A stretch of 32,193 nucleotides of DNA, from assembly GCF_001043115.1 (NCBI RefSeq), contig NZ_LFME01000046.1, positions 1-32,193 on the forward strand, written 5' to 3'. Positions 15,239 through 28,402 of the stretch are shown here, piece after piece. The notes under the pieces were generated by a model. The model saw only the letters and a list, made by a program, of their open reading frames with translations, was not told the DNA's origin and did no database searches. Source of the DNA: Xanthomonas sp. NCPPB 1128. GTDB taxonomy: Bacteria; Pseudomonadota; Gammaproteobacteria; Xanthomonadales; Xanthomonadaceae. Position 1 is the first letter of the stretch. Each line of letters opens with the position of its first letter. The translations under genes and the position numbers were made by a program.

Positions 15239-15715
15239 ATGAGCAGCTACGCCAGCAACGACGAAATCCGCGGTGTCCTCATCCTGGCCGGCAGCGAGCG
15301 CGTACTGCTGCCCAACGCCACCATCGCCGAAGTGATGTCGCGCGTGCCGGTCGAACCGCTGCCCGACGCCCCGCACTGGCTGCTCGGCCAGATCGCCTGG
15401 TACGGCTGGAAAGTACCGCTGGTCTCCTTCGCCCGCCTGACCGGCCTGGGCGCCGACACCGTCGCCGCCAACAACAAGATCGTCGTGCTCAAGGCCCTGG
15501 GCGGCAACCCCGACCTGCCGTACTTGGCACTGCTCACCCAATCCTTCCCGCAACTGATCTCCGTCCCCCGCGACGGCCTGCTCGCCGACGCCTCCGAAGA
15601 AACCCTCCCGCCCGGCGTGCACATGCGCGTGCTGCTGGGCGAGCAGAGCGCGTTGTTGCCCGATCTGGAGGCGATCGAGGGGATGGTGGTGGAGCGGTTT
15701 GTGCTTGCGGGATGA
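15239..15715 (+). CDS. chpC: CheW-like adaptor, ChpC-type
   Basis: The 158-aa product is a CheW-family protein. VLILAGSERVLLPNATIAEV is the first CheW strand pair, WLLGQIAWYGWKVPLVSF the central block, and the C-terminus ends LLPDLEAIEGMVVERFVLAG. ChpC in Pseudomonas is a second adaptor linking extra receptors to ChpA; the same is inferred here. The start at 15239 follows AGGACGA and lies 73 bp after the CheB-like gene. It closes the conserved operon. About 100 bp of its 3' end are repeated at 21422-21525, which shows that this gene was the left edge of a duplication. Confidence 0.9.
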   Translation: MSSYASNDEIRGVLILAGSERVLLPNATIAEVMSRVPVEPLPDAPHWLLGQIAWYGWKVPLVSFARLTGLGADTVAANNKIVVLKALGGNPDLPYLALLTQSFPQLISVPRDGLLADASEETLPPGVHMRVLLGEQSALLPDLEAIEGMVVERFVLAG

Positions 15716-15719
15716 CTCT

Positions 15720-15737
15720 GTGTTTTTAATAAAACAC
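15720..15737. other. AT-rich palindrome after chpC
   Basis: GTGTTTT-TAAT-AAAACAC forms a 7-bp perfect stem with a TAAT loop directly after the chpC stop. It is too weak in G/C for a standard intrinsic terminator, but it sits where one would be expected and has T/A runs on both strands. Confidence 0.35.
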
Positions 15738-15808
15738 CAGATGTAAGTTGGATTTAATCCAGGCTTGTGAAACCTGGCGTTCGGTGTCAAAAATTCTCCA
15801 CGCCAATC

Positions 15809-15824
15809 TGGCCGGCAGCATGCT
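15809..15824 (+). promoter_or_regulatory. Possible sigma54 (-24/-12) promoter before rhs1
   Basis: TGGCCG at 15809-15814 and ATGCT at 15820-15824 place GG and GC exactly 10 nt apart, as in the TGGCAC-N5-TTGCA consensus. A start near 15834 would give a ~20-nt leader containing the ribosome site AAAGGA. The match is partial and found by eye. I see no equivalent at the right spacing upstream of the second RHS gene. Confidence 0.25.
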
Positions 15825-15853
15825 GCTTTCATTGAGTGAAAGGAATCGTGGCT

Positions 15854-18800
15854 ATGAAGTTGAATTTTTCTATCGTCGCGTTGTTTTTGGTGGCGTTAGT
15901 TCTATGGCTTGTTCCTTCGGTGAATCTGCATGCGCAAGCTTCTCAGTACTGCTATGGCGAATCGTGTTTTGCCAGCCTTCCCGAGGCCGAGTCTTACATG
16001 CGCAGCCAGGCAGACCATGGGGCCTATCTGGAACGTTCGGGCTCGAGCATAAAAAATACTGGAAGTAATTCTCCATCTCTTGTTATCTCTTATACGGTTA
16101 ACGATCGGCCTCCTGTCCGATTTTACGAGCCAGGGTATAGTAATGGCTCGAGTTCGCCAGGTGGTACTCCGTCTTGTTCAAAAGCGGATGATCCCTATTT
16201 TGGATATGGAGGCATGTGCGCAAATGAGGCGGAAATGAATGAGGAGTTCCTCGCCTATATGCGCCAAGCCTATGCCGGCTGCTCATTCAATAACGAAAGT
16301 TACGAAGGCTCCTACGGCGAGCCTTTTGTTTTTAGTAGTTCAGTGGGTGGGCATGGGCAGATAAGCTTCGATACTCCACAAGGAAGATGGTTCCATTACG
16401 ATACACAATGTCCAAGTTGGCCGACCAGCGATCCGCGCAAAAATGAATTGCGGAAATTTCAGAACTTTGATTGTGAAGCGGGTTTTTGGCCAGTCTGGGG
16501 GTATAATCCGCAATATAATAACTCCGGAAATCCTGACTACATCGCAATTTGGCCAAATCTATGCACTGCAGGCCAGGTTTATGCTTCCATCGAAGTGCGG
16601 TCGCCTTTAGGGATTACGCAGACATCATCGTGTGCCGCGAATTTGCATCCGTGCTTTCCTGCAACAGGCGATAAGTTGCGGGTAGAAGAGGATTTCGAAT
16701 TTGCGGGTCGCCCCTTTGCGCGTTATTACCATTCTCTGCAGCAGATTCAGGTCTCTGACACCATGGCCCAGGGCTGGGGTCATTCTTATTTGGAGAAAAT
16801 TGGTTACGATGGATTGCCTTATCTGATGTCGGCAGAGGGCTACTTCGAAAAATTTTTGCTGTTGTCCGATAATACCTATCGTGGTTCTCGTAATGAGGCC
16901 GACCTGTTGATCCGTCAGGGTAATGCCTGGCTGCTCAAGCGGGCTGGTGGAGAGCAACGGACTTACAATGCAGATGGCTTGTTGGCGAGCATCTTTTTCC
17001 CGGCGGCACCCGGCCGGAGTGTGACATTGTCCTACCAGAAGGGGCGCTTGCTTCAAGTGGTGGATGGCTTGGGGCGCACCTTATCGTTCTATTACGAAAA
17101 CGGCTTGCTTTCCGCCATTGCATTGAGCGACGGAAGCAGTGTGCACTACGAGTACGATACAGAGCGTAACCTCGCTGCTGCCGTGCGCCAAGATGGTAGT
17201 CGTCGTACCTATGTTTACAATGAGTCTGGCGCTGCGCCGGCATCGATACGTCATTTGTTGACGGGAATAGTGGAGGATGGCGTGCGTTATGCCTCTTTCA
17301 CTTATGTCGATGACGGCAAGGTCGCCTCGAGTGGCTTGAATGTCGATGCCGGTATGGTCGAGAAGACGATGTTGAACTACGTCGACAACGGCACTGTTGT
17401 GGTGACTCAGCCTAACGGGACCGACTATCAGTACGCCATCGGCGCGGGTGCGTTTAGACAAGTCATCGGTATTTCTGGGCCAAATTTATCTGTTTCGCGG
17501 ACGTTTACTGCTGATGGGCGCCTGGCGGCATCCGTCGATGGAAATGGCGTGCGTAATACCTGGTCCTATGACGAATCCTTGAGTAACGGCGGTTCGTCTA
17601 TTACCGAAGTCGAGGCGGAGGGTAAAGCGCAGCAACGCACACGCACGCGGATGCGTGACGCCAATAATCAGCTTGTCCAGTTGCAGTCTTCCACTTCGCA
17701 GGGCGTTAGTTCCATCATCCGCTATGTCTACTCGGCGGATGGTGCCTTGGCTGCGCAGTGCACGATTGACCCAAGTAGCGCGAGCGCTGTGGCTTACAAT
17801 TGTGGTTCCGCGTCGGCACCGCAAACTGGTGTTCGTCAGCAGTTGCTTACGTATTGCTCAGCGGACGACGTCACTGGGAACACTTGTCCAATGGCAGGGC
17901 TGCTGAAGCAAAAGAGCGGTCCGCGTACAGACGTCAACGACGCCGTCACCTTCACCTATTACCCGACCGATGACAGCACCTGCGCCACATCCCCGACCAC
18001 CTGTTCGCACCGCAAGGGCGACTTGTGGAAGGCGGGCAATGCGCTCGGCCAGGTCACCGAGTACCTGGCCTACGACGGTGCTGGCCGCGTGCTGTCGGCG
18101 AAGGACGCCAATGGCGTGGTCACCGATTTCACCTACCACCCGCGTGGCTGGCTGACCGCCAGCAAGGTGCGCGGGTCCGACGACAGCAGCGAAAGTGACG
18201 ATCGCATCACCACGATCGACTACTGGCCGACCGGGCTGGTCAAGCAGGTGACCCAGCCCGATGGCGCGTTCACCCGCTTCACCTACGACGCCGCGCACCG
18301 GCTGACCGATATCGCCGACAACGCCGGCAACACCATCCACTACACCCTGGACAACGCCGGCAACCGATCCAAGGAAGACACCAAGGACACGTCCGGCACG
18401 CTCAAGCGGACCTTGTCGCGCGTGTACAACCAGCTCGGCCAACTGGCGACACAGGCCACCGCGCAGGGCGATCCGACCGACTTCGGCTATGACGGCAACG
18501 GCAACACCAAGACCGTCACCGATGCGCTGGGTCATGCCACCCATAACGATTACGACCCGCTCAATCGCCTGGCGCGTACGCTGCAGGACGTGGGGGGCAT
18601 CGCCGCCGAGACCACCTTCGGCTACGACGCCCTGGACAACCTGACCAAGGTCACGGATCCCAAGGGCCTGGACACCACCTACGCCTACAACGGCCTGGGC
18701 GACCTGACCAAGCTCACCAGCCCGGACACCGGCAGCACCACGTATACCTACGACAGCGCCGGCAACCGCGCCACCCAGACCGATGCGCGCAACATCAAGA

Positions 18801-20683
18801 CCAGCTACGGCTACGACACGCTGAACCGGCTGACCCTGGTCACCTATCCGACCACCAGCCTCAACGTCAGCTACACCTATGACGTCAGCCAGAGCACCTG
18901 CGCCAGCGGCGAAACCTATGGAGTCGGCCGCCTTACCCGGATGCAGGACGGCAGCGGCAGCACCGACGACTGCTACGACCGCTTCGGCGATCTGGTGCGC
19001 AAGGTGCAGACCACCAACGGCAAGGTGTTCGTGGTCCGCTACGCCTACACCAAGTCCGGGCAACTGAGCCGCCTGACCTACCCGGATGGGGCGGTGGTGG
19101 ACTACGTGCGCAACGCCCAGGGCCAGACCACCGAGGTTGGGGTGACCCCGCCTGGCGGCAGCCGCCAGGTGCTGTTGAACCAGGCGACCTACTATCCGTT
19201 CGGCCCGGTCGCCGGCTGGACCTACGGCAACGGCCGGCCAATGCAGCGCGTGCTGGACCAGGACTACCGCCCGCTGGCGGTCAACGACACCCGCAGTGAC
19301 GGCCTGGCGGTGGGCTTCGCCTTCGACCCGGTCGGCAATCTCAGCGCGCTGACCGCGCCGGGCAACACCGCACCGGTCATCAAACTGGACTACGACCCGC
19401 TGGGCCGGCTGACCGCGTTCAAGGACGGCCCGACCGATACGGTGATCGACGGCTATAGCTACGACGCCACCGGCAACCGCCTCAGCGCCAAGGTCAACAC
19501 CACCACCCAGACCTACACCTATCCGACCACCAGCCACCGCCTGAGCAGCGTGGCCGGTACCGCACGCAGCTACGACGCGGCCGGCAACACCACGGCCATC
19601 GGCGGCACCGCCGTGCAGTACGTCTATGGCGCCAATGGGCGGCTGACCCAGGTCAAGCGCAGCGGCACGGTGGTAGCGAACTACGCCTACAACGGCCGTG
19701 GCGAACAGGTGCGGCGGGTGGGCAAGACCAACGTCTACACGCTGTACGACGAGAGCGGCCACTGGCTGGCCGACTACGACAACAACGGCGCGGTCGTGCA
19801 GCAGGCGATCTGGCTGGACGACCTCCCGGTCGGCGTGCTGGCCAAGACCACGCTGCGTTATGTGCAGCCGGATCACCTTGGCACGCCGCGCGCGGTGATC
19901 GACCCGGTCCGCGACGTGGCAATCTGGCGCTGGGACCTGAAGGGCGAAGCCTTCGGTACTACTGCTCCGGACCAAGACCCGGACAAGGACGGAACCGCCT
20001 TCGTGTTCGACATGCGCTTCCCGGGGCAGCGTTACGACGCGCTGAGTGGGCTCAACCAGAACTACTTCCGCGACTACGAGGTGGGTACGGGTCGGTATGT
20101 GCAGAGTGATCCGATTGGATTGGGCGGTGGGTATTCAACTTTTGGTTATGCCTTGGCACGACCAATAAGCTCGTCTGACATGAGTGGCCTACAAGTCGTT
20201 CTTCCTCCTTTGTATTGGGCCACGCCCGGTCCTATTTCGCCCGGAGGTCGTTATGACGATTCATCTGGAGAAGATTTGGCCGGGACATATCGGGATCCAC
20301 GGATGAGGGCGCCGACTTCCTCTGAAGTGCTATCTGGCATCTTGATGGCAGGTGTGGATTTTTATAATTTGCCTATTTTCGGGGGTAACGGCTACCTGGC
20401 AAATAATGCATCCGATGATTCGGCGCGCAGAAAAGAAGAGTATAGTGCATACAAAGAGTTTCAACGGTCTGGCTATCAGCGCGATCCTGATCATTGTAAG
20501 GAGTTAAGGAATCGAATTAATTTTTTGAAGGCGCTGAATTCCATGCGCCAGACTTGGGACGCCTCTTGGCCTCATCCCAATTGGCCAGAGGGCAGGCATG
20601 CTAAGGCTATTTCGGAGGACGCTGAGACTATTAGGCGGCTTGAACAGCAATACAGGATGCAGTGCCCAAATGAATGCTCATGA
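15854..20683 (+). CDS. Sec-exported RHS/YD-repeat protein 1, polymorphic tip
   Basis: The 1609-aa product starts at ATG 15854 behind AAAGGA (an in-frame GTG at 15836 is rejected). A Sec signal peptide (MKLNFSIVALFLVALVLWLV..., cut after ...LHAQA) leads into a Cys-containing N-terminal domain (to about 255), then a DUF6531-like entry (HPCFPATGDKL), many YD repeats, and the RHS-associated core ending GRYVQSDPIGL. A ~162-aa tip follows from about residue 1448. RHS shells encapsulate a C-terminal effector in other systems. No PAAR or VgrG part is present, so this is not a standard T6SS Rhs. DNA before about 17,900 and after about 20,100 is much AT-richer than the core. The ankyrin gene overlaps its end by 14 bp. 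The tip's activity is unknown. Confidence 0.9.
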   Translation: MKLNFSIVALFLVALVLWLVPSVNLHAQASQYCYGESCFASLPEAESYMRSQADHGAYLERSGSSIKNTGSNSPSLVISYTVNDRPPVRFYEPGYSNGSSSPGGTPSCSKADDPYFGYGGMCANEAEMNEEFLAYMRQAYAGCSFNNESYEGSYGEPFVFSSSVGGHGQISFDTPQGRWFHYDTQCPSWPTSDPRKNELRKFQNFDCEAGFWPVWGYNPQYNNSGNPDYIAIWPNLCTAGQVYASIEVRSPLGITQTSSCAANLHPCFPATGDKLRVEEDFEFAGRPFARYYHSLQQIQVSDTMAQGWGHSYLEKIGYDGLPYLMSAEGYFEKFLLLSDNTYRGSRNEADLLIRQGNAWLLKRAGGEQRTYNADGLLASIFFPAAPGRSVTLSYQKGRLLQVVDGLGRTLSFYYENGLLSAIALSDGSSVHYEYDTERNLAAAVRQDGSRRTYVYNESGAAPASIRHLLTGIVEDGVRYASFTYVDDGKVASSGLNVDAGMVEKTMLNYVDNGTVVVTQPNGTDYQYAIGAGAFRQVIGISGPNLSVSRTFTADGRLAASVDGNGVRNTWSYDESLSNGGSSITEVEAEGKAQQRTRTRMRDANNQLVQLQSSTSQGVSSIIRYVYSADGALAAQCTIDPSSASAVAYNCGSASAPQTGVRQQLLTYCSADDVTGNTCPMAGLLKQKSGPRTDVNDAVTFTYYPTDDSTCATSPTTCSHRKGDLWKAGNALGQVTEYLAYDGAGRVLSAKDANGVVTDFTYHPRGWLTASKVRGSDDSSESDDRITTIDYWPTGLVKQVTQPDGAFTRFTYDAAHRLTDIADNAGNTIHYTLDNAGNRSKEDTKDTSGTLKRTLSRVYNQLGQLATQATAQGDPTDFGYDGNGNTKTVTDALGHATHNDYDPLNRLARTLQDVGGIAAETTFGYDALDNLTKVTDPKGLDTTYAYNGLGDLTKLTSPDTGSTTYTYDSAGNRATQTDARNIKTSYGYDTLNRLTLVTYPTTSLNVSYTYDVSQSTCASGETYGVGRLTRMQDGSGSTDDCYDRFGDLVRKVQTTNGKVFVVRYAYTKSGQLSRLTYPDGAVVDYVRNAQGQTTEVGVTPPGGSRQVLLNQATYYPFGPVAGWTYGNGRPMQRVLDQDYRPLAVNDTRSDGLAVGFAFDPVGNLSALTAPGNTAPVIKLDYDPLGRLTAFKDGPTDTVIDGYSYDATGNRLSAKVNTTTQTYTYPTTSHRLSSVAGTARSYDAAGNTTAIGGTAVQYVYGANGRLTQVKRSGTVVANYAYNGRGEQVRRVGKTNVYTLYDESGHWLADYDNNGAVVQQAIWLDDLPVGVLAKTTLRYVQPDHLGTPRAVIDPVRDVAIWRWDLKGEAFGTTAPDQDPDKDGTAFVFDMRFPGQRYDALSGLNQNYFRDYEVGTGRYVQSDPIGLGGGYSTFGYALARPISSSDMSGLQVVLPPLYWATPGPISPGGRYDDSSGEDLAGTYRDPRMRAPTSSEVLSGILMAGVDFYNLPIFGGNGYLANNASDDSARRKEEYSAYKEFQRSGYQRDPDHCKELRNRINFLKALNSMRQTWDASWPHPNWPEGRHAKAISEDAETIRRLEQQYRMQCPNECS
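17940..20190 (+). repeat. RHS core, copy A of a long direct repeat
   Basis: This segment is collinear without gaps with 23875-26125 at a constant offset of 5935 bp. Sampled 60-bp blocks differ at 2-7 positions, mostly third codon bases. The stretch 19459-19869 shows no difference that I can find from 25394-25804. The repeat covers most YD repeats and the RHS-associated core and ends at the SGLQ motif where the tips begin. Confidence 0.92.
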
Positions 20684-21059
20684 TGAATCGTTCCTGGATT
20701 CGGTTCTTGCTAAGTTTAGGATGATGGCAATGTTTGAGGGCTATCAGGTGGAGGGGCCTGATAGTCCTGGAATGGATGGGGACACGCCATTGCACGTTGC
20801 AGCAATGGATGGAAATTTTGAGGCTGTCAAGATATTTATTCCATTTGTAAAAAATATTGATGTTGGCGGTGGTATTGGTAATACTCCTCTTCATTATGCT
20901 GTAATGTGGAACCATCCGGAGGTAGTAAGACTTCTTTTGAAGCATGGCGCGGATATCAATCTGCAGAACGACTATGGGGACACGCCGATGAGCTTGATGA
21001 AAGGTCGGGCGTGCTTCGACGCAATCTTGCAGGAGCAGGCGGGCCGAGGTGCTCACTGA
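20670..21059 (+). CDS. Ankyrin-repeat protein 1, candidate partner of RHS tip 1
   Basis: The 129-aa product starts at ATG 20670, 14 bp inside the end of rhs1, with a weak AGGA upstream. An earlier in-frame ATG at 20598 lies deep inside rhs1 and is not preferred. Ankyrin repeats are clear: GDTPLHVAAMDGNFEAVKIFI, GNTPLHYAVMWNHPEVVRLLLKHGAD and a partial third (YGDTPMSLM). There is no signal peptide, so it should be cytoplasmic. Ankyrin proteins mediate protein binding. A small gene overlapping the end of an RHS gene is the usual position of an immunity gene, and a different ankyrin gene occupies the same spot after rhs2, so immunity is the leading inference, without direct proof. The DNA is AT-richer than the neighbourhood. 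Confidence 0.82.
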   Translation: MNAHDESFLDSVLAKFRMMAMFEGYQVEGPDSPGMDGDTPLHVAAMDGNFEAVKIFIPFVKNIDVGGGIGNTPLHYAVMWNHPEVVRLLLKHGADINLQNDYGDTPMSLMKGRACFDAILQEQAGRGAH

Positions 21060-21063
21060 TGCA

Positions 21064-21410
21064 AGCAGGTCATTCAATCCCATCCCGCTCTGCCGCATGA
21101 TGTAAGGCAACACGCACGCCATCCCGCGCGCCCTCCCAACGCCGGAGCCTTCCCATGCTGCAACGTCGCCACTTCCTAAAAACCGCTGCCTTCGGCGCCC
21201 TGGCCGCCGGGTTGGGCGGTGTGCGCCCGGGCGCGTGTGCTGCGACCAACAGGCCAAGACCGGCGTCAGTCCATTGCCACAGGCGCGCGTGGGTGATTTC
21301 GACTTGGGCTTCGGAGCCGCGGCCAACCAGGCGGCGTTGCGGGTTTTGTCGTGCGGCGGGGTGACGCTGGATTCGCTGGAGGGATGTCCGAAGCGGATTC
21401 TGAAAACCCG
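21064..21410 (+). pseudogene. Frameshifted 5' fragment of the glycosylasparaginase gene
   Basis: This copies the leader and first ~85 codons of the intact gene at 27341. Leader homology begins at GCAGGTC (21064, matching about 27250). The ATG at 21155 opens a Tat signal nearly identical to the intact one (QRRHFLKTAAFGALAAGLGG). A 2-nt deletion near 21250 shifts the frame; the next frame reads QAKTGVSPLPQARVGDFD, matching QAKTGVGPLPNGAARV of the intact gene. A second small deletion near 21380 shifts it again. Homology stops near 21410, where the chpC 3' fragment begins. No catalytic threonine remains. It is a duplication scar. Confidence 0.88.
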
Positions 21411-21421
21411 ATCCTCTTTCG

Positions 21422-21525
21422 CCGGGGTGCACATGCGCGTGCTGCTGGGCGAGCAGAGCGCCTTGCTACCGGATCTGGAGGCGATCGAGGGGATGGTGGT
21501 GGAGCGGTTTGCGGCGGTCGGCTAA
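21422..21525 (+). pseudogene. 3' fragment of chpC
   Basis: From about 21422 the sequence matches the last ~100 bp of chpC (from about 15612) at an offset of 5810 bp, with only a few changes: GVHMRVLLGEQSALLPDLEA, then EGMVVERF, then AAVG in place of VLAG. It has its own stop at 21523-21525. The frame is fused to the preceding asparaginase remnant, so a ~96-codon chimeric frame exists (21235-21525), but nothing suggests that it is translated. Confidence 0.88.
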
Positions 21526-21899
21526 ATCGGACAGCAGTCTTGCAACGGCATTGCTTCTGACTGCGTATCGCAACCATCCTGTCCGATGCTATGCACGCTT
21601 GAGCGAAGACCGCATCGGCTTGTTGCCAGTAGGTAGCGCCATCGTCTAGCATCGCTTCCCGTAATGACAAGGATTGTCGTATGCGTAACGTGCGTGCACC
21701 CGTTCGCTGTACTCTGTCGCTCAGGGATGACGCGATTGCCCGCGCTCGGGCATCCCACCTATTTGGTTTTCCGATAACTCTGCCGAGCCTTTGGCTGCAA
21801 TTGGCGGCGCGCTGTTGTGCGTTGATCGGTCTGCGGCTGGACAGGCAGCCGCAGACCGCTGATTCGATTGGCTTGATGGATTTCTTGCAAGGAAGCGCG
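21526..21899 (+). other. Leader region of rhs2, non-coding
   Basis: This holds no convincing gene. The RHS2 frame stays open upstream to 21681, but that extension (MRNVRAPVRC...) precedes a normal signal peptide and is not expected in the protein. The region contains a strong hairpin (21827-21858). It does not resemble the shorter leader of rhs1 by eye, so this part of the duplicated block was replaced, inserted or lost in one copy. Confidence 0.6.
21827..21858. other. Perfect 13-bp inverted repeat upstream of rhs2
   Basis: CGGTCTGCGGCTG (21827-21839) and CAGCCGCAGACCG (21846-21858) are exact reverse complements around a 6-nt loop. There is no T-run behind it, so it is not a standard terminator. 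It lies 41 bp before the RHS2 start and would form a stable hairpin in the leader mRNA, or could bind a dimeric protein as DNA. Confidence 0.7.
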
Positions 21900-24800
21900 A
21901 TGAACACGATGCGCCACGAACGTACCTCCGGCGGCGCCAGCCGCCTCGCGCTGGTAATGGCGCTGTTCTTTCTGTTCGTGGGTTCGGCGTTCGCCGAGAC
22001 AGAAGGGCCGAAGCAGCAGTTTCTTGTCCGTGATGCGGAAGGAAATGATCACGGCACCTACTACACCCAGCCGCAGGCGGAGGCGGCGATCAAGGCGATT
22101 CCTGGGCCTCAGAATATGGAGGATGTGTACCAGTACGTCGATACGATCAAGGACACCGTCGTACAAGAAAGCGGGACAACCGTGATCACCTATTGGATGG
22201 GTCGTACCGAAGCCAGGGACGAAAACTGGACCTATCAAAGTTGGCAGGCGTCCAAGATCCCGACCGAAGACCAAGCTGCCGCCGTTCTTGCACAGGAAAT
22301 CAGTGCTACCAGACCCAATTGCCCTTCGGCCTCGGTCGCACCAGAAGGGCCATGGGAGCTGTCGTTCGGTCCATATCCCGAGTATGACGCCGGCATTGAA
22401 GCGCAAAGCAGGCGGTATAGCGTTCGGACGTACTATGACGATTGCAGCGGCCCTAACGAATACACCACCTTCATGGGGCGTACGCGTCGCTCCGATTGTC
22501 CGAAACCCTATGCCACATGGCATATCAGCGACCAGGGCTGCACGAACAAGGAAATCTTCGCGACCATCGAAGTCTCGACACTTCAGTGTGAGAGACCGCA
22601 AGCGGGCGGCAACTCCGGAATGCGAGGCAACCCCTGCGACGTCAAGACCGGCGAGAAATTCCAGACCGAACGCGACGTGGATCTGGGCTGGATCACCCTG
22701 ACGCGCTACTACCACTCCGGCATCGCACTGAATACCGGTGGTTTCGGTCCCGGCTGGACTTTCTCGCACAGCCTGCGCCTGACGATCCAGGGCGACGCGC
22801 TGGGCCTGGTGGAGGGCAGCGGCTACGCCGTGCCGTTCCGCAAGATGGGCTCCGAGTATCGCGCAGCCAATGCCTCGGGCGAACGCATCGTCGCCAATGG
22901 CGACCAGTGGGTGCTGTATCGCGAGGATGCGATCTACACCTTCGATGCCAAGGGCAAGCTGGTCTCGCGCATGGTCGAGGATGGCAGTGGGTGGGTGTAC
23001 GGCTATAACGTACGTGGACGCTTGCAAAGCATCGCGTCGCTGCAGGGGCGCTCCATCGAACTGGTGTATGCCGACGACAATGACGACGCCCTGATCACCG
23101 GCATCGTCTCTGGTGGAGTGCGGCTAGCGAGCTACGGCTACGACCAGCAACGCCTGGTGAGCGTCACGTATGCCGATGGCAAGAGCCGGATCTATCACTA
23201 TGAGGACGCACGCTTCCCGCGCCATCTGACGGGTGTGACCACGGAAGATGGCCAGCGCTTCAGCACCTTCGCCTACGACGAGGTTGGCCGGGCGATCTCC
23301 AGCCAGCACGCTGGTGGCATCGACGGCATCACCCTGGCGTACTCGGCTGCCGGTACTCGTGTCACCGATGCGCTGGGCGATGTCAACGATTACACGATGA
23401 CCGAGGCGGGTGGTGCCTCGCCGAAGGTCGCCACCGTGACCAGGACCGACGGGACGCTGCAGTACAGCTACAACGACCAGTCCAGCGACTTCCGCCGCCG
23501 GCTGAGCAGCGTCACCGATCGCCGTGGTATCCAGACCCAGCACAGCTACGCCGAAGCGACCGAGAACGGTGTCGCGGTGAACATCCACACCGTACGCGAG
23601 GCGATCGGACAACCGCAGGAGCGCACCACGACGACGCGTACCGCGGCTGGCAGCAATCGCCTGCTGTCGGTGCAGACCGGCGGGCGCACCGTGTCCTACA
23701 GCTACAACGATCGCCTGCAGCCGGTGCAGATGACGAGCAGCGACACGGCTTCAGGCAAGCAGCGCACTATCACCTACAGCTACTGCGAAGCGTCCGACGT
23801 AGCCGCGACCGACAGCACCTGCCCGATCCTGGGCCTGCCCAAGTCGGTCGATGGCGCGCGCACCGACGTCAACGACATCACCAGCTTTACGTATTACCCC
23901 AGCGACGAAAGTAGCTGCGTCACGTCCGCGACCGCCTGCTCGCACCGCAAGGGCGACCTGTGGAAGGTGACCAACGCGCTTGGCCAGGTCACCGAGTACC
24001 TGGCCTACGACGGCGCCGGCCGCGTGCTGTCGGTGAAGGACGCCAATGGCGTGGTCACCGACTACACCTATCACCCGCGCGGCTGGCTGACCGCCAGCAA
24101 GGTGCGTGGGGCTGACGACAGCAGCGAGAGCGATGACCGCATCACCACGATCGACTATTGGCCGACCGGTCTGGTCAAGCAGGTGACCCAGCCCGATGGC
24201 GCGTTCGCCCGCTTCACCTACGACGCCGCGCATCGGTTGACCGATATCGCCGACAACGCCGGCAACACCATCCACTACACGCTGGACAATGCCGGCAACC
24301 GATCCAAGGAAGACACCACGGACGCGTCGGGCACGCTCAAGCGCACGCTCTCGCGGGTGTACAACCAGCTCGGCCAATTGGCGACGCAGGCCACCGCACA
24401 AGGTGATCCGACCGACTTCGGCTACGATCCCAACGGCAACACCAAGACCGTCACCGACGCGCTCGGGCATGCCACCCAGAACGACTACGACCCGCTCAAC
24501 CGCCTGGCGCGGACGCTGCAGGACGTGGGCGGCATCGCCGCCGAAACCAAGTTCGGCTACGACGCGCTGGACAACCTGACCAAGGTCACTGACCCCAAGG
24601 GCCTGGACACCACCTACGCCTACAACGGCCTGGGTGACCTGACCAAGCTCATCAGCCCGGACACCAGCGCTACCACCTACACCTACGACAGTGCCGGCAA
24701 TCGCGCCACCCAGACCGATGCGCGCAACATCAAGACCAGCTACGGCTACGACGCGCTGAACCGGCTGACCCAGGTCACCTATCCGACCACCAGCCTCAAC

Positions 24801-26612
24801 GTCAGCTACATTTACGACGCCAGCCAGACCCCCTGTGCCAGCGGCGAGACCTATGGTGTTGGCCGCCTGACCCGGATGCAGGACGGCAGCGGCAGCACCG
24901 ACTACTGCTACGACCGCTTCGGCGATCTGGTGCGCAAGGTGCAGACCACCAACGGCAAGGTGTTCGTGGTCCGTTACGCCTACACCAAGGCCGGACAGCT
25001 GAGTCGCATGACCTACCCGGACGGGGCCGTGGTGGACTACGTGCGCAACGCCCAGGGCCAGACCACCGAGGTTGGGGTGACCGCGGCCGGCGGCTCGCGC
25101 CAGATATTGCTTAAGCAAGCTACCTATTATCCGTTTGGCCCTGTCGCCAGCTGGACCTACGGCAACGGCCGCCCGATGCAACGGGTGTTGGATCAGGACT
25201 ACCGTCCGTTGGCGATCAACGACACCCGCAGCGACGGGCTGGCGGTGGGCTTCGCCTTCGACCCGGTCGGCAATCTCAGTGCACTGACCGCGCCGGGCAA
25301 CACTGCACCGGTGGTCAAACTGGATTACGACCCGCTGGGCCGGCTGACCGCGTTCAAGGACGGCCCGACCGATACGGTGATCGACGGCTATACCTACGAC
25401 GCCACCGGCAACCGCCTCAGCGCCAAGGTCAACACCACCACCCAGACCTACACCTATCCGACCACCAGCCACCGCCTGAGCAGCGTGGCCGGTACCGCAC
25501 GCAGCTACGACGCGGCCGGCAACACCACGGCCATCGGCGGCACCGCCGTGCAGTACGTCTATGGCGCCAATGGGCGGCTGACCCAGGTCAAGCGCAGCGG
25601 CACGGTGGTAGCGAACTACGCCTACAACGGCCGTGGCGAACAGGTGCGGCGGGTGGGCAAGACCAACGTCTACACGCTGTACGACGAGAGCGGCCACTGG
25701 CTGGCCGACTACGACAACAACGGCGCGGTCGTGCAGCAGGCGATCTGGCTGGACGACCTCCCGGTCGGCGTGCTGGCCAAGACCACGCTGCGTTATGTGC
25801 AGCCCGACCACCTGGGCACGCCGCGCGCCGTCATCGACCCGGTCCGCGACGTGGTAATCTGGCGCTGGGACCTGAAGGGCGAAGCCTTCGGCACCACCGC
25901 CCCGGACCAGGATCCGGACAAGGACGGAACCGCCTTCGTGTTCGACATGCGCTTTCCTGGGCAGCGTTACGACGCGCTGAGCGGGCTGAACCAGAATTAC
26001 TTCCGAGACTACGAGCCGGGCACTGGTCGGTATGTGCAGAGTGATCCGATTGGGTTGGATGGGGGTATTAGTACATATGGCTATGTGGCTGGCGCTTCAC
26101 TGATGTTAAGTGATGCCAGTGGGTTACAGGCTTTTGTCATTAGCTACGGACCGGGCATGACTGGCGCAGCTGGTGCCGCTGCGGCATATAACTCAAATAA
26201 CATCGAGAATAAATACGACTTAAATAGCTGTGGGCCAAAGGTGACGGAGGAAAATGTTTCGTTCCTTATGAATTTATTTGAATTGGTCGGTCCACAAAGT
26301 GTGTTTAGCATCAAGGGGTTGCCCTGGATGGCCACTAACGCAGCTGTTGGGCGCGCACAGCAAGCGGTAGAAAGGCGGGAGTATAGTAGGGTTTGTAAGT
26401 CGCCAATACCGCCTACGGGCGATAAATGTAAGGACGCTCTTGCAAACCTCCAGCGTCTTAAGCAGTGCCTTCAATTGCGCGACGCTTTTAGTAAGAAATG
26501 GTTTAATGATCAGGATGCTGGGCACGTAATTGAGGTTGATAATACTCGAAGGGCAATCAAGAAGCTGGAGGATTTTATTGGTCGCAATTGTCCCGCAATG
26601 ATCATTAATTGA
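21900..26612 (+). CDS. Sec-exported RHS/YD-repeat protein 2, polymorphic tip
   Basis: The 1570-aa product starts at ATG 21900 after AAGGAAG. A signal peptide (core LALVMALFFLFVGSAFA, cut before ETEG) is followed by an N-terminal domain built like that of RHS1 (AEAAI motif, VITYWMGR, paired Cys, ATIEV), then DUF6531 (GNPCDVKTGEKFQTERD), YD repeats and the RHS core ending GRYVQSDPIGL. A ~160-aa tip follows from about residue 1411. The core is a near copy of RHS1 but the N-terminal third is high-GC and differs at DNA level. The tip shares with tip 1 a C-terminal pattern CK-x9-LK...W...GH...I-x2-LE...CP. An ankyrin gene follows 7 bp later. The same caution applies: export beyond the periplasm and tip activity are unknown. 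Confidence 0.9.
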   Translation: MNTMRHERTSGGASRLALVMALFFLFVGSAFAETEGPKQQFLVRDAEGNDHGTYYTQPQAEAAIKAIPGPQNMEDVYQYVDTIKDTVVQESGTTVITYWMGRTEARDENWTYQSWQASKIPTEDQAAAVLAQEISATRPNCPSASVAPEGPWELSFGPYPEYDAGIEAQSRRYSVRTYYDDCSGPNEYTTFMGRTRRSDCPKPYATWHISDQGCTNKEIFATIEVSTLQCERPQAGGNSGMRGNPCDVKTGEKFQTERDVDLGWITLTRYYHSGIALNTGGFGPGWTFSHSLRLTIQGDALGLVEGSGYAVPFRKMGSEYRAANASGERIVANGDQWVLYREDAIYTFDAKGKLVSRMVEDGSGWVYGYNVRGRLQSIASLQGRSIELVYADDNDDALITGIVSGGVRLASYGYDQQRLVSVTYADGKSRIYHYEDARFPRHLTGVTTEDGQRFSTFAYDEVGRAISSQHAGGIDGITLAYSAAGTRVTDALGDVNDYTMTEAGGASPKVATVTRTDGTLQYSYNDQSSDFRRRLSSVTDRRGIQTQHSYAEATENGVAVNIHTVREAIGQPQERTTTTRTAAGSNRLLSVQTGGRTVSYSYNDRLQPVQMTSSDTASGKQRTITYSYCEASDVAATDSTCPILGLPKSVDGARTDVNDITSFTYYPSDESSCVTSATACSHRKGDLWKVTNALGQVTEYLAYDGAGRVLSVKDANGVVTDYTYHPRGWLTASKVRGADDSSESDDRITTIDYWPTGLVKQVTQPDGAFARFTYDAAHRLTDIADNAGNTIHYTLDNAGNRSKEDTTDASGTLKRTLSRVYNQLGQLATQATAQGDPTDFGYDPNGNTKTVTDALGHATQNDYDPLNRLARTLQDVGGIAAETKFGYDALDNLTKVTDPKGLDTTYAYNGLGDLTKLISPDTSATTYTYDSAGNRATQTDARNIKTSYGYDALNRLTQVTYPTTSLNVSYIYDASQTPCASGETYGVGRLTRMQDGSGSTDYCYDRFGDLVRKVQTTNGKVFVVRYAYTKAGQLSRMTYPDGAVVDYVRNAQGQTTEVGVTAAGGSRQILLKQATYYPFGPVASWTYGNGRPMQRVLDQDYRPLAINDTRSDGLAVGFAFDPVGNLSALTAPGNTAPVVKLDYDPLGRLTAFKDGPTDTVIDGYTYDATGNRLSAKVNTTTQTYTYPTTSHRLSSVAGTARSYDAAGNTTAIGGTAVQYVYGANGRLTQVKRSGTVVANYAYNGRGEQVRRVGKTNVYTLYDESGHWLADYDNNGAVVQQAIWLDDLPVGVLAKTTLRYVQPDHLGTPRAVIDPVRDVVIWRWDLKGEAFGTTAPDQDPDKDGTAFVFDMRFPGQRYDALSGLNQNYFRDYEPGTGRYVQSDPIGLDGGISTYGYVAGASLMLSDASGLQAFVISYGPGMTGAAGAAAAYNSNNIENKYDLNSCGPKVTEENVSFLMNLFELVGPQSVFSIKGLPWMATNAAVGRAQQAVERREYSRVCKSPIPPTGDKCKDALANLQRLKQCLQLRDAFSKKWFNDQDAGHVIEVDNTRRAIKKLEDFIGRNCPAMIIN
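23875..26125 (+). repeat. RHS core, copy B of a long direct repeat
   Basis: This is the partner of 17940-20190, offset 5935 bp, with no indel across the whole stretch. The near-identical part (about 25317-25804) is a natural substrate for homologous recombination between the two RHS genes, which would swap tips and ankyrin partners or delete the intervening scar. Confidence 0.92.
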
Positions 26613-26619
26613 GGTTGGC

Positions 26620-26979
26620 ATGAAAGTAGAGGACGTTTTGTTGTTGTATAGAGATCTTCCTGAGTATGCTGGAATTGAATTGGATGGCGTAAAAAAGATC
26701 AGTCTGTTCGGCGACTATCCAATTAATGTTGCGGCAACGCGCGGCTCTGTGCGAGAAATGTCTGCTCTCTTTAATGCTGGTGCGAACCTTAATGCTTCTG
26801 GTGAGCATGGATATACACCTCTGCATAATGCGGTAGAGCAAGGCAATGTTGATGCGGTTAAATGGCTTTTAGAGAATGGCGCGGATAAAGGGCTGTGTAA
26901 TTCCTCAGGTGAGACTCCAGCTGACCTGGCAACTATTTTGTGCGAGAATTTAATTGAGTCGATCTTGAATGCTTCGTGA
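26620..26979 (+). CDS. Ankyrin-repeat protein 2, candidate partner of RHS tip 2
   Basis: The 119-aa product starts 7 bp after the rhs2 stop, behind GAGGTTGG. Ankyrin repeats: YPINVAATRGSVREMSALFNAGANLN, YTPLHNAVEQGNVDAVKWLLENGAD and a partial third (GETPADLA). There is no signal peptide or membrane segment, so it is probably cytoplasmic. It occupies the same position after rhs2 that ankyrin protein 1 holds after rhs1, and the two differ strongly outside the ankyrin consensus, as expected if each matches its own tip. The DNA is AT-rich like the tip region and unlike the flanking housekeeping genes. An immunity role is inferred from position. Confidence 0.82.
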   Translation: MKVEDVLLLYRDLPEYAGIELDGVKKISLFGDYPINVAATRGSVREMSALFNAGANLNASGEHGYTPLHNAVEQGNVDAVKWLLENGADKGLCNSSGETPADLATILCENLIESILNAS

Positions 26980-27051
26980 GGTGTGTTTAGATATTTGATG
27001 TTGCCTTGATTACGGCCCTGCAGCACGCTTGAGGCCTCCATCGCCGGCTGA

Positions 27052-27189
27052 CGTGGCATTGGCGAAAATGCTACCCATCGTCTTGGCAACCTCATCGACC
27101 AACTCTCCCAGCATCCGCGGCCAGCGCATCTCTATCTGGATTTTGATGGCTATGCACGCACTGTTATCATTTCTATGGATGAGTATTGA
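27052..27189 (+). pseudogene. Possible C-terminal gene remnant without a start
   Basis: A 45-codon open frame ends HLYLDFDGYARTVIISMDEY and looks like the C-terminus of a real soluble protein, yet it has no usable start codon after the TGA at 27049-27051 and no ribosome site. It could be what is left of another small partner gene of a lost RHS tip. I do not recognise the family; chance openness is also possible. The rest of the 26980-27250 gap shows nothing. Confidence 0.3.
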
Positions 27190-27249
27190 TCTTCCGGTTA
27201 ATCCTGCACGTCTGCAGGAGCATGCGCGGCAGGGAGCTCTGCAACGCCC

Positions 27250-27340
27250 AGCAGGTCGTTTAATCTCTTCCCACTCTGCCGCATGATGTAAGGCCACGCG
27301 CACCTCCTCCCGCGCGTCCTCCCAAAGCCGAAGCCTCCCC
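27250..27340 (+). repeat. Asparaginase leader, intact copy of the duplicated segment
   Basis: This leader matches 21064-21154 with a few substitutions and small indels (both contain CTCTGCCGCATGATGTAAGG). It marks where the duplicated block resumes after the ankyrin module and shows that the copied piece included the leader as well as the first codons of the asparaginase gene. Confidence 0.8.
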
Positions 27341-28402
27341 ATGCCGCAACGCCGCCACTTCCTGAAAACCGCCGCCTTCGGCGCCCTGGCCGCCGGGTTG
27401 GGCGGTGTGCTTCCTGGCGCACGCGCCGCGGCCAAGATGCAGGCCAAGACCGGTGTGGGGCCGCTGCCAAACGGCGCTGCACGGGTGATCTCCACCTGGG
27501 ACTTCGGCATCGCCGCGAACCAAGCGGCGTGGCAGGTGCTCTCCCGCGGTGGCGCGGCGCTGGATGCGGTGGAAGCCGGGGTGCGGGTGCCGGAGGCGGA
27601 TCCGGACAATCACACTGTGGGGTTGGGCGGTTATCCGGACCGCGATGGGCGGGTCACGCTGGATGCCTGCATCATGGATCACACCGGTGGGTGCGGGTCG
27701 GTCGCGGCGCTGGAGGACATCGTGCATGCGATCTCGGTGGCGCGGCGGGTGATGGAGAAGACGCCGCATGTGATGCTGGTCGGCGATGGCGCGCTGCAGT
27801 TCGCGCTGGCGCAGGGCTTCGAGCGCACCAAGCTGCTGACGCCCGAATCGGAGCAGGCGTGGAAGGAGTGGCTGAAGACTTCCCACTACGCGCCCGAGGC
27901 CAATATCGAGAACCGCGCCTATCGCCGCGGCACGCTGCCCGGCGGCAAGGACAACCACGACACGATCGGCATGCTGGCGCTGGATGCGCACGGCAATCTG
28001 TCCGGCGCTTGCACCACCAGCGGCATGGCCTGGAAGATGCACGGCCGGGTCGGCGACAGCCCGATCATCGGGGCGGGGCTGTACGTGGACAACGAGGTGG
28101 GCGGGGCGACCTCCACCGGCGTCGGCGAGGAGGTGATCCGCAACGTCGGCAGTTTCGCGGTGGTGGAGATGATGCGGCAGGGCAAGAGCCCGGCCGAGGC
28201 CTGCCGCGAGGTGGTGATGCGCATCGTGCGGCGCAAGCCGCAGCTCACCCGCGACCTGCAAGTGGGGTTCCTGGCGATGAACAAGCGTGGCGAGGTCGGT
28301 GCGTTCGCGATCCAGCCCGGTTTCAGTTACGCGGTCTGCGATGCGCAGCGGCAGGACCTGCTGCTGCCTGGGCAGAGCCATTTCGCGGCGCCGGCGGCAT
28401 GA
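27341..28402 (+). CDS. N4-(beta-N-acetylglucosaminyl)-L-asparaginase, Tat-exported
   Basis: The 353-aa product is an Ntn-hydrolase of the glycosylasparaginase family. A twin-arginine signal peptide (QRRHFLK, then a hydrophobic stretch and an Ala-rich cut near residue 30) predicts folded export to the periplasm. The self-cleavage site is in GGKDNHDTIGML: Thr208 becomes the N-terminal nucleophile of the beta chain. GCGSVAALEDI and DNEVGGATSTGVGE are further family motifs. The enzyme cuts the GlcNAc-asparagine bond of N-glycosylated asparagine after the protein has been degraded. Its stop overlaps the cutC start as ATGA. A broken copy of its 5' end lies at 21064-21410. The nearby fucosidase suggests a glycoprotein-scavenging function. 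Confidence 0.93.
   Translation: MPQRRHFLKTAAFGALAAGLGGVLPGARAAAKMQAKTGVGPLPNGAARVISTWDFGIAANQAAWQVLSRGGAALDAVEAGVRVPEADPDNHTVGLGGYPDRDGRVTLDACIMDHTGGCGSVAALEDIVHAISVARRVMEKTPHVMLVGDGALQFALAQGFERTKLLTPESEQAWKEWLKTSHYAPEANIENRAYRRGTLPGGKDNHDTIGMLALDAHGNLSGACTTSGMAWKMHGRVGDSPIIGAGLYVDNEVGGATSTGVGEEVIRNVGSFAVVEMMRQGKSPAEACREVVMRIVRRKPQLTRDLQVGFLAMNKRGEVGAFAIQPGFSYAVCDAQRQDLLLPGQSHFAAPAA

What the first reader, a model, noticed from the sequence alone, without database searches (positions are those of the whole stretch)
15612..27610. Head-to-tail duplication of an RHS-ankyrin module, with both edges preserved as gene fragments
The order is chpC - rhs1 - ank1 - [asparaginase 5' piece | chpC 3' piece] - rhs2 - ank2 - intact asparaginase. 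The scar between the modules joins the right edge of one unit (asparaginase codons 1 to ~85) to the left edge of the next (last ~100 bp of chpC), with the breakpoint between about 21405 and 21424. This is the expected product of a tandem duplication of the block from chpC 3' to asparaginase 5'. The module then diverged at its ends while the cores stayed alike. The locus looks like a hotspot where effector-like modules are carried between a motility operon and a glycan gene.
Basis: seen in the sequence. Interest (0 to 1): 0.85.

Follow-up and report, generated by a model that had tools for sequence, protein, structure and literature searches.

The report
Two stacked Rhs toxin gene alleles
Between a motility-control gene and an asparaginase gene this bacterium carries two different versions of a probable bacterial-warfare toxin gene side by side, joined by scraps of the two neighbouring genes, and relatives suggest they are two distinct alleles stacked together rather than copies of one gene.

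Summary
In detail: chpC – rhs1 – ank1 – [asparaginase 5' piece | chpC 3' piece] – rhs2 – ank2 – asparaginase, joined near 21388–21421. "Duplicated, then diverged" does not. (1) rhs1 and rhs2 belong to different N-terminal classes, each found as the only full module at this site in other species. (2) The chpC piece beside rhs2 carries the tail and leader of rhs2's class, as in both other two-module species. (3) Module 2 matches another site in Xanthomonas sp. F10 end to end (5.4 kb, 89.6%), module 1 only over the 2.2-kb core. (4) Outside one 479-bp tract with one mismatch, best read as gene conversion, the cores are no closer to each other than to other species' cores.

Best reading: two complete alleles of a polymorphic Rhs toxin–immunity locus were joined illegitimately. 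All 19 same-genus genomes with chpC and asparaginase within 17 kb carry an Rhs gene between them; 3 have two modules, with different joins. Across 38 modules the ends are shuffled, while 20 of 30 cores from multi-module genomes are nearest to one of the same genome. New variant of a known kind; the join mechanism and the toxin and immunity functions are inferred.

The parts
15239..15715 (+). chpC (CheW-like), intact left boundary gene; its last codons and leader match those of G003 module 1 (class A)
   Evidence: CheW PF01584 E 1.1e-14; leader linked only to L001 module 1
15836..20683 (+). rhs1, N class A, 1615 aa, signal-peptide-like start, RHS core 17906-20155, C-terminal tip CT1
   Evidence: N class and tips
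20670..21059 (+). ank1, ankyrin-repeat gene whose likely ATG (20670) overlaps the rhs1 stop; inferred immunity gene (the mechanical ORF starts at 20598)
   Evidence: Ank_4 E 3.4e-24; start read from the sequence
21060..21406 (+). asparaginase upstream region and 5' piece (about 80-90 codons), broken relic
   Evidence: 78.7% to 27213-27573; groups within its own host clade in the asparaginase tree
21388..21421 (.). join (breakpoint zone)
21422..21525 (+). chpC 3' piece with class-B tail
   Evidence: 94% to 15612-15701; 21388-21700 matches L006 chpC plus leader 279/302, while the match to the own chpC stops at 21517
21638..27039 (+). module 2 cassette as one unit, colinear with a cassette at another site of Xanthomonas sp. 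F10
   Evidence: 5407 columns at 89.6% to L105:3796-9197
21681..26612 (+). rhs2, N class B; the signal-peptide-like start is at 21900; RHS core 23841-26084; tip CT2 (weak Ntox16 match)
26620..26979 (+). ank2, ankyrin-repeat gene, inferred immunity gene
   Evidence: Ank_5 E 6.7e-17; 82% to the gene behind the same tip in L105
27341..28402 (+). intact asparaginase (Asparaginase_2), right boundary gene
   Evidence: E 1.9e-71
19391..19869 (+). tract read as gene conversion, copy in rhs1 (1 mismatch in 479 bp; 411 bp identical)
25326..25804 (+). the same tract, copy in rhs2

Best explanation
This is allele stacking at a polymorphic Rhs toxin-immunity locus. The chpC-asparaginase gap is a fixed address for Rhs cassettes in this genus. 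A cassette is leader, N-terminal class, shared RHS core, variable tip and downstream small gene. In this lineage two complete cassettes of different N class (A and B), each with its own class-specific end of chpC, came to lie head to tail through an illegitimate join between the asparaginase 5' part of one allele and the chpC 3' part of the other. The likely route, inferred, is that incoming DNA carrying a second allele recombined homologously on one side and joined illegitimately on the other. Stacking rather than replacing would keep the old toxin-immunity pair, so the cell would stay immune to its kin (inferred). Once stacked, the two cores recombine: one 479-bp tract is near-identical. The same core homology can swap N ends and tips within and between genomes and, if two cores cross over, collapse the stack into a chimera with the first N end and the last tip (inferred; no collapse was observed). 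Shown: architecture, class-specific flanks, separate histories of the two modules, near-identical tract, shuffled ends. Inferred: the join mechanism, its selective value, and the toxin and immunity functions.
For: The leader plus chpC tail follows N class: 16 of 16 BLASTN links among 23 modules beside chpC or a chpC piece join same-class modules; 15 of the 23 have a link, 8 have none. No shuffle of 20,000 reaches 16 (best 13; links are not independent). In 3 of 3 two-module genomes module 2's chpC piece carries the tail/leader of its own class: window to L006 89%, G003 to L005 71%, G013 to L010 78%. Module 2 is colinear (5407 columns, 89.6%) with a cassette at another site in Xanthomonas sp. 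F10, tip and ank2 included. Outside the tract, cores 1 and 2 are 89.3% identical and sisters in 0 of 200 bootstrap trees; core 1 groups with G003 module 1 (95/98). On variable sites the tract scores 108 against at most 76 for the other 35 pairs of clade cores, 0 of 5000 shuffles. All 19 same-genus genomes with the two genes within 17 kb have a full RHS core between them. Among 38 modules: 12 N classes, 28 tip clusters, 5 of 8 shared tips on different N classes. On the core tree 20 of 30 modules from the 12 multi-module genomes are nearest to one of the same genome (0 of 5000 shuffles, also within host clades), and holding class B or A together is rejected (p-AU 7.6e-89 and 2e-4).
Against: On the whole core the two window cores are each other's sisters (80/97; 95/98), as a duplication would predict; this goes away only when the tract is left out. 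A looser segment score over all sites does not single the pair out (794; three other pairs reach 856-975). In G003 both modules fall in the same broad N class A (N parts about 44% identical, leaders not linked), so only 2 of the 3 stacks join different broad classes. Class B shows some clustering on the core tree (6 changes; 18 of 500 shuffles as low), classes A and C none to speak of (176 and 133 of 500), and the bootstrap of that tree had not settled. Duplication of one module followed by replacement with a foreign cassette, leader and chpC tail included, gives the same end product. The asparaginase piece has diverged more than the chpC piece (69/361 against 5/90, Fisher p 0.001), so the two sides of the scar may differ in age, constraint or source. 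Independence of the three scars rests on different breakpoints and on fragments grouping with their host clades (at least 2 origins forced); the window and G003 scars could share an ancestor reshaped by deletion. The grouping of the chpC piece with L006 has support 85/76 only. Neither toxicity nor immunity was tested.
Confidence: 0.72

Rival explanations
1. True tandem duplication of one module, then replacement of one copy's cassette (leader, N end, tip) by homologous recombination with a foreign allele.
For: The scar geometry is that of a tandem join; cassettes are shared between sites and species; a conversion-like tract shows that the cores recombine; in G003 both modules are of one broad N class.
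Against: Needs an extra step, with one crossover inside the ~100-bp chpC piece so that the B tail and leader come along; the same coincidence would be needed in three species. Outside the tract the cores show no trace of recent common descent.
Confidence: 0.2
2. One reading: duplication of the block, then divergence of the ends while the cores stayed alike.
For: Architecture and scar; window cores sisters on the whole alignment.
Against: N ends about 27% identical against 92% cores in the same genes; each N class exists in other species at the same site; class-specific tails; full-length match elsewhere; core history.
Confidence: 0.03
3. Insertion of a second module by a dedicated mobile element or site-specific recombinase that uses the asparaginase 5' region as target.
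For: Asparaginase 5' relics recur next to RHS modules, also at an ectopic place in G014 (L020) and in G006 and G003.
Against: End points of the asparaginase pieces differ (about codons 58, 76, 80-90, 100, 101 and 150, some read by eye). On the + strand between chpC and asparaginase, ORFs of 90 aa or more are rhs, ank, frames overlapping them, and one 96-aa frame across the scar; these overlapping frames were not searched against a library. No target-site duplication was looked for.
Confidence: 0.05

Closest known systems
Rhs C-terminal displacement (Jackson et al. 2009, PMC2935791; passages seen)
   Same: Conserved core, clade-specific N-terminal domain, exchangeable C-terminal tip, dissociated tips downstream of the core
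   Different: There the N-terminal sequences agree with the core phylogeny (passage); here they do not, and whole cassettes with scraps of both housekeeping neighbours are stacked. 'Concerted' and 'homogeni' do not occur in its held text
Sequential displacement of T6SS effector-immunity modules in Vibrio cholerae (Kirchberger et al. 2017, PMC5361080; passages seen)
   Same: Addition of a foreign module with retention of old immunity, proposed to use homology-facilitated illegitimate recombination
   Different: There the old effector is replaced and immunity genes pile up; here both full toxin genes stay open and the scar keeps pieces of both boundary genes
Orphan Rhs/CDI toxin-immunity modules (Poole et al. 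2011, PMC3150448; Koskiniemi et al. 2014, PMC3967940; titles and starts of abstracts only)
   Same: Orphan toxin-immunity units linked to rhs genes; core fragments also occur in relatives here
   Different: Module 2 here is a complete gene with its own leader and signal-peptide-like start, not an orphan tip
Homologous recombination between tandem immunity paralogues (PMC9484751; title and start of abstract only)
   Same: Recombination between tandem paralogues shapes a toxin-immunity locus
   Different: That work concerns immunity genes of type VII secretion; here the shared RHS core is involved, also between distant sites

Membership tests
Rhs polymorphic toxin-immunity locus | RHS/YD repeats with a conserved core | tested here: met
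   RHS_repeat PF05593 E 1.8e-57 and 4.3e-65. TIGR03696 (core end) appears in 8 of 10 tip stretches scanned, 2 of them above its cut-off; the two window stretches, cut behind most of that domain, gave no hit
Rhs polymorphic toxin-immunity locus | Variable C-terminal tip after the core | tested here: met
   28 tip clusters among 38 modules; of 198 family genomes, own included, CT1 in 1 and CT2 in 3, one of these partial at 36%
Rhs polymorphic toxin-immunity locus | Small gene directly downstream that moves with the tip | tested here: met
   ank1 overlaps the rhs1 stop and ank2 starts 7 bp behind rhs2; tip 91.6% and ank2 82% are together in L105. One case only; ank1 has no such second case
Rhs polymorphic toxin-immunity locus | Toxicity of the tip and protection by the downstream gene | not testable with these tools
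   Bench question
Ntox16 toxin domain (PF15523) | Score above Pfam's gathering cut-off | tested here: not met
   CT2 20.6 bits against 25, E 5.4e-4; CT1 no hit. Not filed as members
Ntox16 toxin domain (PF15523) | Alpha-helical, conserved R and [DNE]xxH (Zhang et al. 2012, PMC3482391, passages) | tested here: inconclusive
   CT2 R...DAGH and CT1 R...EGRH align (BLASTP 8e-9, 24%, partly in the shared core end); the confident part of the CT2 model, about residue 92 on, is helical, but mean pLDDT is 54
T6SS-delivered Rhs | PAAR or similar N-terminal delivery domain | tested here: not met
   Only DUF6531 and RHS in Pfam at E up to 0.001; N-termini look like Sec signal peptides (read by eye, no predictor run)
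Simple tandem duplication | Copies closer to each other than to other species' modules over the whole unit | tested here: not met

The most novel reading that the evidence does not exclude
The genus runs a stack-and-collapse system. Foreign Rhs alleles are added whole by illegitimate joins at a fixed address, so old immunity is not lost. The RHS core, kept alike within each genome by gene conversion across its Rhs sites, then serves as the recombination handle that collapses stacks and mixes N-terminal ends with toxic tips. N-terminal classes would thus be a second polymorphic axis, decoupled from the core, and the scraps of chpC and asparaginase would be a record of each addition.
Probability: 0.35. 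Interest if true: 0.7.

Novelty: new variant of a known kind. Interest (0 to 1): 0.52.

Why it matters
How a cell changes a toxin-immunity allele without becoming prey to its own kin is an open problem for polymorphic toxins (my framing). This locus suggests an answer that can be read in sequence: alleles are added, not swapped, and an addition leaves a scar of two housekeeping genes. It also shows Rhs genes that are polymorphic at both ends around a core that follows the host genome rather than the N-terminal class, unlike the pattern reported for Enterobacteriaceae (PMC2935791, passages). Scars of this type can be searched for across strains to count additions and collapses.

Tried and rejected
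Plasmid search with the scar: no match. Dating from the two fragments: dropped, because the chpC and asparaginase pieces have diverged unequally and are short. A constant end point in asparaginase: considered, rejected after the aligned end points differed. Relocation of module 2 from site 2 of the same genome: site 2 in G000 (L118) shows no RHS but about 1.5 kb of other sequence; the direction of movement between the F10 site and the chpC site cannot be told. Tip families: for 9 of 10 tips scanned Pfam gave nothing, and for all 10 NCBIfam gave nothing but the end of the RHS core and hits far below cut-off. An Ntox16-like tip in another genus (L123, 36%) is followed by a gene without similarity to ank1 or ank2, so that toxin family is not tied to ankyrin immunity. 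The structure model of CT2 is too poor (pLDDT 54) for a fold search, so none was run.

Print: chpC with Xanthomonas and Rhs gave 1 paper, not opened; Xanthomonas translucens with Rhs 6, not opened; Rhs with gene conversion, toxin, tandem and core 2, not opened; homology-facilitated illegitimate recombination with Rhs 4, of which only PMC5361080 was looked at, in passages; of 211 papers with two of Rhs, concerted evolution and polymorphic toxin, the 10 listed hold no 'concerted evolution'; broader listings. I do not claim that this is unpublished, only that these searches did not show it.

Odds of the best reading went from 0.75 to 0.72 because of G003, and of the mobile-element rival from 0.07 to 0.05 so that the four add up to 1.
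Full report
What is there. The window holds chpC, two RHS genes each followed by an ankyrin-repeat gene, and an intact asparaginase gene, with a broken asparaginase 5' piece fused to a chpC 3' piece between the modules. Apart from those pieces the two modules share DNA over the core (17922-20135 and 23857-26069, 92.2%); the asparaginase piece is 78.7% and the chpC piece 94.4% identical to the intact genes. The join lies between about 21388 and 21421.

The address. I searched the 20 same-genus genomes that the tool holds, the window's own included. In 19 the two boundary genes lie within 17 kb, and in all 19 at least one full RHS core lies between them; 16 have one full module and 3 have two: the window, G003 and G013. 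Core fragments also occur, for instance in G007, G012 and G006. In the twentieth (G001) chpC is followed by an RHS gene, but the asparaginase lies about 1.6 Mb away on the same contig. In 13 outgroup loci with both genes (L019, L025-L035, L038) no RHS match was printed, core hits under 50% identity having been left out of the print; in all 13 a gene of up to about 190-215 aa with shared residues, read by eye, lies between them.

Not copies of each other. The N-terminal parts of rhs1 and rhs2 are about 27% identical where they align. I clustered 38 modules: 23 beside chpC or a chpC piece and 15 at other sites; the 14 members of a 68-70% core family and the core fragments were left out. This gives 12 N classes by single linkage; rhs1 is in a class of 9 (A), rhs2 in one of 13 (B). 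Class-B genes are the only full module beside chpC in G019, G007, G012, G005 and G006. The last codons of chpC and the following leader go with class: all 16 detectable links among 23 leaders join the same class, while 8 leaders have no link and class A holds three unlinked leader groups. The chpC pieces behind all three scars have the tail of the module to their right. The window's piece runs from chpC into a leader that matches L006 at 279 of 302 positions, whereas its match to the resident chpC stops at 21517. Module 2 as a whole, 21638-27039, matches one cassette at a different site in F10 over 5407 columns at 89.6%, tip and ankyrin gene included. In G003 the two modules are both of broad class A, with N parts about 44% alike.

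Core history. The two cores are 91.4% identical; cores of the clade are 89-93% identical to each other. The exception is 19391-19869 against 25326-25804, with one mismatch in 479 bp. On variable sites the segment score is 108, against at most 76 for 35 other pairs, and 0 of 5000 shuffles; a looser score over all sites does not set the pair apart. Without the tract the identity is 89.3%, core 1 groups with G003 module 1 (95/98), and cores 1 and 2 are sisters in 0 of 200 bootstrap trees; with it they are sisters (80/97, 95/98). The simplest reading is two old alleles plus recent conversion. G013's two cores are 93-99% alike in the middle windows and 77-82% in the end windows.

Genome-wide pattern. 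On the tree of 38 cores the 13 clade-1 cores other than L104 form one side of a branch (99/98), while keeping class B or class A together is rejected (p-AU 7.6e-89 and 2e-4); class B is somewhat clustered (18 of 500 shuffles as low), and the bootstrap had not settled. Of 30 modules from the 12 genomes with at least two, 20 have their nearest core in the same genome: 16 of these 20 at another site, 13 of these 20 with another N class; no shuffle of 5000 reaches 20, also within host clades. Ten do not. Tips fall into 28 clusters, and 5 of the 8 shared ones sit on different N classes. In G011 and G004 the tip and following DNA are 96-100% alike for about a kilobase while the N ends just before the core are about 50%. 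So the core behaves as common ground over which ends are exchanged.

Scars elsewhere. G003 has asparaginase to about codon 58 joined to chpC from about codon 71-81, and besides it an asparaginase piece of about 150 codons joined to an RHS core fragment; G013 has a decayed join at about asparaginase codon 100, read by eye. G006 and an ectopic RHS of G014 also carry asparaginase 5' relics. In trees the fragments group with their own host clades, which forces at least two origins. Whether the window and G003 scars are one event reshaped or two cannot be decided.

Function. The architecture is that of Rhs polymorphic toxins: open genes with signal-peptide-like starts (read by eye), core, variable tip, and a small gene directly downstream. 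CT2 matches Ntox16 weakly (E 5.4e-4, 20.6 bits against a cut-off of 25); CT1 and CT2 share the R and [DNE]xxH pattern given for Ntox16 in PMC3482391 (passages; alignment). That paper's table lists ankyrin repeats as immunity proteins with Tox-AHH and no immunity protein for Ntox16. Immunity by ank1 and ank2 is therefore inferred. Ank1-like genes (68-71% over 118 residues) also stand just before asparaginase, or before the asparaginase piece in G003, in three relatives (G003, G018, G012) behind other tips, which fits retained old immunity.

Mechanism and rivals. A single illegitimate join between two different alleles explains flanks, tails and core histories at once. Duplication followed by cassette replacement is the serious rival (0.2), a dedicated element a minor one. 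Illegitimate joining in such loci has been proposed before (PMC5361080, passages), so this is a new variant of a known kind: whole alleles stacked, both boundary genes leaving scraps, N ends decoupled from the core.

Noticed in passing
window 21235-21525: A 96-aa open frame (GTG start) runs across the scar and fuses a stretch of the asparaginase piece in frame to the chpC C-terminal end; no evidence that it is expressed.
   Followed up: no
L020:7885-8190 (G014, about 150 kb from its chpC site): An ectopic class-C RHS module is followed by an asparaginase 5' relic, as if a chpC-site cassette had moved with part of its right neighbour.
   Followed up: partly
L118 (G000 C29:45500-54000), L105, L103, L110, L111, L113: A second RHS site: occupied in G019, G012, G014, G006 and G013, without a detected RHS in G000, G003, G007, G010 and G018; the other genomes were not sorted.
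   Followed up: partly
L117 (G000 C4:108387-110630): A separate RHS family with a 68-70% core, 14 members, was not analysed.
   Followed up: no
L001:8843-10018 (G003): Two asparaginase pieces in a row, one joined to an RHS core fragment, the next to a chpC piece: a multi-step scar.
   Followed up: partly
window, about 27000-27140: Short stretch between ank2 and asparaginase that matches sequence upstream of the ank1-like gene in G018, G012 and G003; possibly a remnant of an older module end.
   Followed up: no
L021 and L114 (G001): RHS genes at two sites of one genome with 99-100% identical core stretches and the same tip (92% aa) but different N classes.
   Followed up: partly
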